DNA from: Paracoccus sp. (in: a-proteobacteria)
Lineage (GTDB): Bacteria > Pseudomonadota > Alphaproteobacteria > Rhodobacterales > Rhodobacteraceae
NCBI RefSeq assembly: GCF_030538755.1
Contig: NZ_JAUNTJ010000011.1
Coordinates: 32,561 to 96,560 of the forward strand
DNA: 64,000 bases
Reading direction: 5' to 3'
The translations under genes were made by a program, and so were the position numbers. The notes below the pieces were generated by a model that was not told the DNA's origin, searched no databases, and saw nothing but the letters and a program-made list of their open reading frames with translations. Numbering within the stretch: the first letter of the stretch is position 1; each line of letters starts with the position of its first letter. Shown here one piece after another: positions 41,479 to 42,714 of this stretch.

Positions 41479-41550
41479 GTCTGCTCCTGCAATGGGGTGG
41501 GGGCAGGGTTGTCGCGCGCGGCACAAAAATCAAGCGCCACGCGCCGCGAT

Positions 41551-42573
41551 TCAGCCCTTGCCCAGCACACGATTGCCCAACAATTCCGCGATCTGCACCA
41601 TGTTCAGCGCCGCGCCCTTGCGCAGATTGTCGCTGACGCACCACAGGTTCAGGCCGTTTTCGACCGTCGAATCCTGCCGGATGCGGCTGACGAAAGTGGC
41701 AAATTCCCCAACAGATTCAATGGGGGTGATATAGCCGCCGTCCTCGTGCTTGTCGATGACCAGCAGGCCGGGGGCCTCGCGCAGGATGTCGCGGGCTTCG
41801 TCTTCGTCCAGAAAATCCTGAAACTCCACATTGAGGGATTCGGCCTGACCGACGAACACCGGCACGCGGACGCAGGTGACGGCCAGGCGGATCTTCGGAT
41901 CGAGGATTTTCTTGGTTTCGGCGACGATCTGCCATTCCTCGCGGGTGGTGCCGTCCTCCATGAAATCGCCGATCTGGGGGATGACGTTAAAGGCGATCTG
42001 GCGAGGAAATTCTTTTGGTTCAACCTCTTGGCCGGGGACATACAGGCCCTTGGTCTGGTTCCACAGCTCGTCCATGGCCTTGGTGCCGGCGTCGGAAACC
42101 GACTGATAGGTGGACAGCACGACGCGGCGGATGCGGGCGCGGTCGTGCAGGGGCTTCAGCGCCACCACCAGTTGCGACACCGCGCCCAAGGGGCCGGCGA
42201 TGATGTGTTTTTTCGCAGCGTTTTCAATGGCTGCGGCGTTTACCTCGGGGACGATCAGGGGCACGTCGGGGTCGGTGGACCAGACGCCGGACCCGTCGAT
42301 CACAAAGCACCCGGCGCGGGCGGCGGCGGGGGCATGGGCGCGCGCGGTTTCGGCATCGGTGGCGAACAGGGCGATGTCCCAGCCGGCAAAGTCAAAGCCA
42401 TCAATATCGCGGCATTTCAAGGTCTTGTCGCCAAAGCCGACCTCGGTTCCGATGGAACGGCGGCTGGCCAGCGCGGCGATCTGATCGACGGGAAATTCCC
42501 GTTCGGCCAGAATGTTCAGCATCTCGCGGCCCACATCGCCGGTGGCCCCGGCGACGACGATGTTATAGCCCAT
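41551..42573 (-). CDS. Aspartate-semialdehyde dehydrogenase-like protein lacking catalytic Cys and His
   Basis: A 340-residue protein that aligns by eye along its whole length with alphaproteobacterial Asd: NADP loop VAGATGDVGREMLNIL (7-22), PDVPLIVPEVN, the STYQSVS segment and the C-terminal NLRKGAALN. The nucleophile region, normally NPNCST, reads AGPLGAVSQ, so Cys130 is Gly. The catalytic His of VGHSE is Gln243 (VGQAES), and the phosphate-binding Arg near 99 is Ser. The frame is intact, with AAGGA before the ATG. Probably a pseudoenzyme, like the E. coli Asd homologue Usg; a true asd should exist elsewhere. Confidence 0.8.
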   Translation of the reverse strand: MGYNIVVAGATGDVGREMLNILAEREFPVDQIAALASRRSIGTEVGFGDKTLKCRDIDGFDFAGWDIALFATDAETARAHAPAAARAGCFVIDGSGVWSTDPDVPLIVPEVNAAAIENAAKKHIIAGPLGAVSQLVVALKPLHDRARIRRVVLSTYQSVSDAGTKAMDELWNQTKGLYVPGQEVEPKEFPRQIAFNVIPQIGDFMEDGTTREEWQIVAETKKILDPKIRLAVTCVRVPVFVGQAESLNVEFQDFLDEDEARDILREAPGLLVIDKHEDGGYITPIESVGEFATFVSRIRQDSTVENGLNLWCVSDNLRKGAALNMVQIAELLGNRVLGKG

Positions 42574-42714
42574 CGGTCAGTCCTTTCCTGCAACCTGTTC
42601 CACATAGGTGGCGGCGGGCCAGCGCGCAACAGCCGCGCGCGTTGCGCGACACGTGTTGCGTGACCGGAATGTGATCGGCTGCCCGCATGGGCCAGCAATT
42701 GCCGGGTTTGGGGC

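What the first reader, a model, noticed from the sequence alone, without database searches (positions are those of the whole stretch)
41551..42573. Intact Asd homologue with the catalytic Cys, His and phosphate-binding Arg replaced
The protein keeps the overall Asd sequence but reads AGPLGAVSQ where the nucleophile motif NPNCST should be (Cys130 to Gly), VGQAES where VGHSE should be (His to Gln243) and GSGVWST where the phosphate-binding Arg should be (Ser99). Gln157 of STYQ and Arg236 remain. The frame is full length with a good ribosome site, so this looks like a retained pseudoenzyme rather than decay. The E. coli Usg protein is a precedent for an Asd relative without known enzyme function. 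It may have become a regulator or a partner of the true Asd.
Basis: partly seen in the sequence, partly recalled or inferred. Interest (0 to 1): 0.7.

Follow-up and report, generated by a model that had tools for sequence, protein, structure and literature searches.

The report
Dead biosynthetic enzyme kept after replacement
In some Paracoccus bacteria an essential amino-acid enzyme has lost its catalytic residues while a distant relative probably does the chemistry, yet the dead copy is kept under strong selection, which suggests that it has a second, non-catalytic job.

Summary
Window 41551-42573 (minus strand) encodes a full-length beta-type aspartate-semialdehyde dehydrogenase (Asd) homologue without the catalytic Cys (Gly130), acid-base His (Gln243) and phosphate Arg (Ser99); Lys215 is lost too (Gln). 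It is the only beta-type Asd found in its genome (86.8% complete); an intact gamma-type Asd lies on contig C30 and presumably does the chemistry. Of 125 genus genomes 20 carry gamma Asd: 16 of 20 have a dead beta gene, 4 of 20 a canonical one; 104 of 104 non-carriers with a beta gene are canonical. The 16 dead genes are full length, with omega 0.085 (clade A) and 0.107 (clade B) against 0.087 in 12 canonical genes. An rpoB DNA tree rejects one dead clade (AU p about 1e-4), so two or more deaths are likely; beta-gene trees do not settle this. Gamma lies between mepA and recQ in 12 of 13 carriers examined (the 13th stretch ends before recQ) and is absent there in 10 of 10 non-carriers examined. 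In a phylum sample 13 of 17 beta homologues of other gamma carriers also lack the Cys (Usg-like). Best reading: a retained pseudoenzyme born of enzyme displacement; its job is not shown.

The parts
41551..42573 (-). gene for the 340-aa catalytically dead beta-type Asd homologue (pseudo-Asd)
42581..42588 (-). ribosome-binding-site-like GGAAAGGA, seven bases before the ATG
   Evidence: read; judged by eye
42529..42549 (-). codons 9-15, GATGDVG, Rossmann (NADP-site) glycine motif; G9, A10, T11 and G15 kept in all 122 genes read
42277..42279 (-). codon 99, Ser in place of the phosphate-site Arg (lost in 4 of 4 of clade A, kept in 12 of 12 of clade B)
42184..42186 (-). codon 130, Gly in place of the nucleophile Cys
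41929..41931 (-). codon 215, Gln in place of the second phosphate-site residue, Lys
   Evidence: role from the figure 3 legend of PMC3276109, mapped here by spacing
41845..41847 (-). codon 243, Gln in place of the acid-base His
41533..41549 (-). two overlapping terminator-like stems just after the stop codon (consensus match only; 5 such sites in the scanned stretch against 1.5 in shuffles)

Best explanation
It is a retained pseudoenzyme. A gamma-type Asd between mepA and recQ in part of the genus supplies aspartate semialdehyde. In genomes with that gene the resident beta-type Asd was free to lose catalysis; probably on two lineages it lost the nucleophile, the acid-base residue and part of the phosphate site, while the fold, the NADP-site motif and the Tyr-Gln of the dimer-interface network stayed. 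SHOWN: the losses, the co-occurrence with gamma Asd in this genus, full-length retention and purifying selection. INFERRED: that gamma Asd makes the metabolite, that the dead protein is still a dimer with a nucleotide site, and that it is kept for a non-catalytic role, most economically an older second role of Asd (a protein contact in the aspartate pathway, or an NADP(H)-dependent regulatory contact) that the chemistry used to mask.
For: The own genome search found two proteins with the Asd C-terminal domain: this one and a gamma Asd with its motifs intact. 16 of 20 gamma carriers are dead; 102 of 102 fully read non-carriers and 2 of 2 split ones are canonical. 20 of 20 carriers keep an open beta gene of 339-340 aa. 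Omega 0.085 (4 genes of clade A), 0.107 (12 of clade B), 0.095 (4 canonical genes of carriers), 0.087 (12 non-carriers); omega fixed at 1 costs 185 and 724 log-likelihood units for A and B. 113 of 193 canonical-invariant columns are kept in all 122 genes; 9 are changed in all 16 dead genes, among them C130, N129, S131, K215 and H243. Y156 and Q157 are kept in 16 of 16 dead genes, T155 in 15. rpoB DNA tree with 13 of the 16 dead genomes: one dead clade rejected, AU p 1.2e-4. C136S in H. influenzae Asd virtually eliminates catalysis (PMC3276109 section 4).
Against: The role has no direct evidence. The beta tree on all columns puts the 16 dead genes on one side of a branch; without 40 active-site columns they part, but one clade is not rejected (p 0.41). 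In the rpoB protein tree the well-supported branches do not force more than one change. Four carriers, and two more in other genera, still have canonical beta, so gamma Asd permits but does not force death. The carriers are related, so the 16 are not independent. One omega per set can hide relaxed sites, and synonymous changes may be saturated.
Confidence: 0.85

Rival explanations
1. New enzyme: the old Asd fold was turned to another reaction with a new active site, so it is a neofunctionalised enzyme and no pseudoenzyme.
For: Replacements are partly fixed: H243D in 12 of 12 of clade B, H243Q in 4 of 4 of clade A, E212A in 11 of 12 of B; long stem branches of 0.17 (A) and 0.27 (B); nucleotide motif kept.
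Against: Position 130 holds Gly, Ala, Pro or Thr, so no conserved nucleophile replaced the Cys there, and the two clades differ at 99, 212 and 243.
Confidence: 0.2
2. Slow decay: the displaced beta gene is simply not yet lost.
For: Dead genes have longer branches than canonical ones; loss of catalysis could be a first step of decay.
Against: 16 of 16 dead genes are open over the full length; omega about 0.1, like the working enzyme, and omega 1 strongly disfavoured; clade B members have diverged down to 69% identity while staying open.
Confidence: 0.06
3. Partner of the gamma Asd: the dead beta subunit forms a mixed complex with gamma Asd or stabilises it.
For: In this genus dead beta occurs only with gamma Asd; the dimerisation domain keeps 68 of 105 canonical-invariant columns.
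Against: The two are only about 30% identical over a C-terminal stretch, and gamma Asd of E. coli, V. cholerae and H. influenzae is a homodimer (PMC3276109, passage).
Confidence: 0.15
4. One death plus transfer: the beta gene died once and the dead allele spread by recombination between clades.
For: The beta tree on all columns joins the dead genes (100/98); both clades share P278D (16 of 16) and mostly K215Q (13 of 16) and T77A (14 of 16).
Against: Clade A shares neighbours with the carriers that have canonical beta, while none of the 12 clade B loci (7 to 13 kb) shows those neighbours; residues 99, 212 and 243 differ between clades; the clades part when 40 columns are dropped; rpoB DNA tree.
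Confidence: 0.2

Closest known systems
E. coli Usg (b2319) and Usg-like proteins of gamma-Asd bacteria; P. aeruginosa USG-1 homologue 2hjs
   Same: Beta-type Asd homologue without the Cys (E. coli: Ser; Arg99 to Ala, Asn129 to Asp, Arg236 to Gln) in a gamma-Asd genome; 13 of 17 sampled; Asp at 243 in clade B and in 6 of these 13.
   Different: 38% identity only; below the cut-offs of the related models NF004224 and NF005957; other neighbours (pdxB-usg-truA in E. coli; for the window); clades A and B keep Tyr156-Gln157 in 16 of 16, the 13 Usg-like proteins keep Tyr in 1 and Gln in 3.
Canonical beta-type Asd of Paracoccus (TIGR01296)
   Same: Orthologue: 69-79% identity of clade A to canonical genus genes over the whole length; clade A shares neighbours with the four carriers that have canonical beta.
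   Different: No nucleophile, no acid-base residue, no intact phosphate site.
Vibrio cholerae Asd II (2qz9, 2r00)
   Same: Best match among solved structures by sequence and by fold; a beta Asd in an organism that also has a gamma Asd (1mb4 in the list).
   Different: Keeps the canonical motifs (alignment).

Membership tests
beta-type Asd sequence family (TIGR01296, NF011456) | score over the curated cut-off | tested here: met
   397 over 324 bits and 440 over 223 bits
functional Asd enzyme | Cys nucleophile and His acid-base | tested here: not met
   Gly130 and Gln243
functional Asd enzyme | phosphate-site Arg and Lys | tested here: not met
   Ser99 and Gln215; roles from PMC3276109
functional Asd enzyme | dehydrogenase activity | not testable with these tools
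   needs an assay
Usg (orthologue of E. coli usg) | over the cut-off of the related NCBIfam models | tested here: not met
   272 under 284 (NF004224), 250 under 273 (NF005957); that these models stand for Usg is recalled
Usg (orthologue of E. coli usg) | pdxB-usg-truA gene order | tested here: not met
   E. coli order; neighbours of the window gene (named by eye, no pdxB or truA search was run)
Usg-like pseudo-Asd (by analogy) | beta-type homologue without Cys in a gamma-Asd genome | tested here: met
retained pseudoenzyme | intact frame under purifying selection | tested here: met
retained pseudoenzyme | non-catalytic function | not testable with these tools
   needs genetics or binding data

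The most novel reading that the evidence does not exclude
Asd of these bacteria is a two-job protein. When a gamma Asd takes over the chemistry, the beta protein can shed catalysis, repeatedly and with similar replacements (Asp for His243 here and in many Usg-like proteins), but is not dropped, because its second, non-catalytic job cannot be replaced. Paracoccus would show the birth of Usg-type proteins in mid-course: non-carriers, carriers with both enzymes intact, and two lineages already converted.
Probability: 0.3. Interest if true: 0.8.

Novelty: new variant of a known kind. Interest (0 to 1): 0.62.

Why it matters
It is a natural experiment: working, double and converted states of one essential enzyme coexist in one genus at 69-79% identity (clade A against canonical), so what survives the loss of catalysis can be read residue by residue. 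It gives a tractable way to look for a hidden role of Asd and of the little-studied Usg. It also warns that the equivalog models used for annotation name this protein Asd, although it lacks the nucleophile and the acid-base residue.

Tried and rejected
Sequencing error or frame decay: rejected by three close genomes with the same losses and by open frames in all 16 dead genes. A second beta Asd as the true enzyme: none found in the own genome, which is 86.8% complete.

Number of deaths: the beta trees do not settle it. The rpoB DNA tree does most of the work; it is one gene, holds 27 of the 30 genomes asked (none found in G000, G115, G033), that is 13 of 16 dead genomes and 10 of 104 non-carriers, and 7 rows have unusual composition. 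The rpoB protein tree also counts three changes, but its well-supported branches force only one.

Conflicts kept: G115 (86% complete, 4% contamination) has a gamma gene that groups with clade A and a beta gene in clade B, so a mixed bin or a transfer is possible. G020 (3% contamination) joins clade A by rpoB DNA and clade B by the reduced beta set (98/90). G048 pairs with G020 (91/91) in the rpoB DNA tree, so there may be more than one death inside clade A; the shared motif speaks for one.

No functional partner was found: neighbours of clade A and clade B are unlike (names by eye). Papers: ten searches, all used. None of the listings held a paper on a dead Asd in Paracoccus. Searches wrote the enzyme's name with spaces, which does not match the hyphenated form, and the hyphenated name with pseudoenzyme was not searched; most subscription journals are missing; so absence from print is not shown. 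PMC8743551 and PMC12173739 (passages) name usg only in a reference. PMC9385607 (passages) does not mention usg.

The promoter scan found one promoter-like site, inside the gene; it was not followed.

Full report
WHAT IS THERE. The minus-strand frame 42573-41551 encodes 340 residues. Both Asd domains match and the beta-type Asd model TIGR01296 scores above its cut-off. The predicted structure (mean pLDDT 83, pTM 0.81; weak at 193-200 and 282-288; the other four models scored 72 to 56) matches beta-type Asd best, Vibrio cholerae Asd II first (TM 0.84, rmsd 4.3). The residues of the reaction are gone: Cys130 is Gly, His243 is Gln, Arg99 is Ser and Lys215 is Gln; Gln157, Glu212 and Arg236 remain. 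Their roles are taken from the review PMC3276109 (section 4 read; passages with the figure 3 legend: Cys nucleophile, His acid-base, Glu and Arg substrate binding, Arg and Lys part of the phosphate site); the spacings Glu to Lys (3) and Arg to His (7) are the same here.

THE REST OF THE GENOME. In the own assembly (3.0 Mb, 50 contigs, 86.8% complete) two proteins with the Asd C-terminal domain were found: this one and a gamma-type Asd at G000:C30:171589-172740, which passes TIGR01745 at 572 bits (cut-off 403) and has GGNCTVS, DAASTLR and CHSQ. All 20 gamma genes of the genus have these motifs.

THE GENUS. In the 125 genomes held for the genus, 20 carry the gamma Asd at E below 1e-200 and 124 a beta homologue (the exception, G016, is 71% complete and has neither). 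I read 122 beta genes in full and two split ones in pieces (G030, G123). Of 20 gamma carriers 16 have lost both Cys130 and His243 and 4 (G020, G023, G064, G120) are canonical. Of 104 non-carriers with a beta gene 104 have the canonical Cys, Arg99 and His. Fisher's p of 9e-17 ignores kinship and must not be read as 16 independent events. By identical beta protein G064 is Paracoccus albicereus TK19116 and G028 the MAG Paracoccus sp. S5R_St_32; the other 18 carriers are unnamed here. Among the 80 named loci kept (the best 80 of 565), 1 lacks NPNCST: that of G028.

TWO LINEAGES. The dead genes form clade A (G000, G018, G028, G048: R99 lost, C130G, H243Q) and clade B (12 genomes: R99 kept in 12, C130 to Ala, Gly, Pro or Thr, E212A in 11, H243D in 12, R236Q in 2). 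In the rpoB DNA tree of 27 genomes the 10 clade B members present are one group (100/100), the 3 clade A members present (G000 has no rpoB in its assembly) group with G020, which has gamma plus canonical beta (100/100), and one dead clade is rejected (AU p 1.2e-4). The rpoB protein tree also counts three changes but leaves clade A's place open. The beta tree on all columns joins A and B; without 40 active-site columns they part, yet one clade is not rejected (p 0.41). Gene order: clade A shares neighbours with the 4 carriers that have canonical beta, and with G006, the one non-carrier compared, in part; none of the 12 clade B loci shows those neighbours. Two deaths or more is likely and not proven.

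SELECTION. Omega under MGK+F3X4 is 0.085 (A, 4 genes), 0.107 (B, 12), 0.095 (4 canonical genes of carriers) and 0.087 (12 non-carriers drawn at random from those at least 339 aa long). Under MG+F3X4, fixing omega at 1 lowers the log-likelihood by 185 (A) and 724 (B). Of 193 columns invariant in the 106 canonical genes read in full, 113 are kept in all 122; nine are changed in all 16 dead genes: I72, T77, L97, N127, N129, C130, S131, K215, H243. Kept are G9, A10, T11, G15, R38 and S40 near the nucleotide site (that R38 and S40 touch NADP is recalled) and Y156 and Q157; T155 is Ser in one. In Vibrio Asd a Thr-Tyr-Gln run links the two active sites across the dimer interface (PMC3276109, passage). 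The catalytic and dimerisation domain keeps 68 of 105 canonical-invariant columns and the NADP domain 45 of 88.

THE REPLACING GENE. I examined the gamma locus in 13 of the 20 carriers: mepA lies on one side in 13 of 13 and recQ on the other in 12 of 13; the G018 stretch that I took ends before recQ (gene names by eye). In 10 of 10 non-carriers examined (of 12 asked; 11 gave a recQ match and 10 were fetched), mepA and recQ stand about 2.5 kb apart without gamma. Gamma Asd is rare in samples of the family (3 of 295, own included) and of the class (3 of 385, own included). The best plasmid-collection match is a Burkholderia replicon at 68.5%, so an origin in beta- or gammaproteobacteria is plausible. 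Whether the genus gained gamma once and many members lost it, or it spread later, is open. Two carriers in other genera (G238, G410) keep canonical beta.

BEYOND THE GENUS. Of 200 proteobacterial genomes sampled 41 carry gamma Asd. Of the 40 besides the own one, 17 have a separate beta homologue at E below 1e-25 and 23 match only through the gamma gene itself. Of the 17, 13 lack the Cys and 4 are canonical. E. coli Usg is like the 13. Asp at position 243 is found in 12 of 12 of clade B and 6 of the 13, and Gly at 96 in 4 of 4 of clade A and 9 of the 13. The 13 may share an old origin, so this is analogy and not a count of events; and 23 of 40 carriers without a separate beta homologue show that beta can also be absent beside gamma, which speaks against a beta role that can never be dropped.

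READING. The enzyme was displaced by another subfamily, lost its chemistry, and stays under a selection strength like that of the working enzyme. A non-catalytic role is the natural inference; I favour an older second role of Asd that outlived its catalysis. A new enzymatic activity is less likely because position 130 holds no consistent residue. Nothing here shows the role itself.

Noticed in passing
G030:C1:2645563-2646578 (L276, L280) and G123:C1:1411637-1412640 (L277, L283): Two non-carriers have a canonical-motif beta asd split between frames; without a gamma Asd this is more likely an assembly error than a real loss.
   Followed up: partly
G115 (L036 gamma, L064 beta): Its gamma gene groups with clade A and its beta gene with clade B: a mixed bin or a transfer.
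   Followed up: no
G514 and G788 (L272, L273): Two single-contig 1.2 Mb alphaproteobacterial genomes of one genus carry a gamma Asd (58-59%) and gave no separate beta match.
   Followed up: no
window 41551-42573: NCBIfam equivalog models name this protein aspartate-semialdehyde dehydrogenase above their cut-offs, so automatic annotation would misname it and its kin.
   Followed up: yes
L162:3637-4650 (E. coli usg): E. coli Usg lacks the Cys, Arg99, Gln157 and Arg236 of Asd but keeps the His, yet is annotated as a putative semialdehyde dehydrogenase.
   Followed up: partly
phylum sample, 40 gamma carriers: 23 of 40 have no separate beta homologue at E below 1e-25; whether they lost it or never had it was not looked into.
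   Followed up: no
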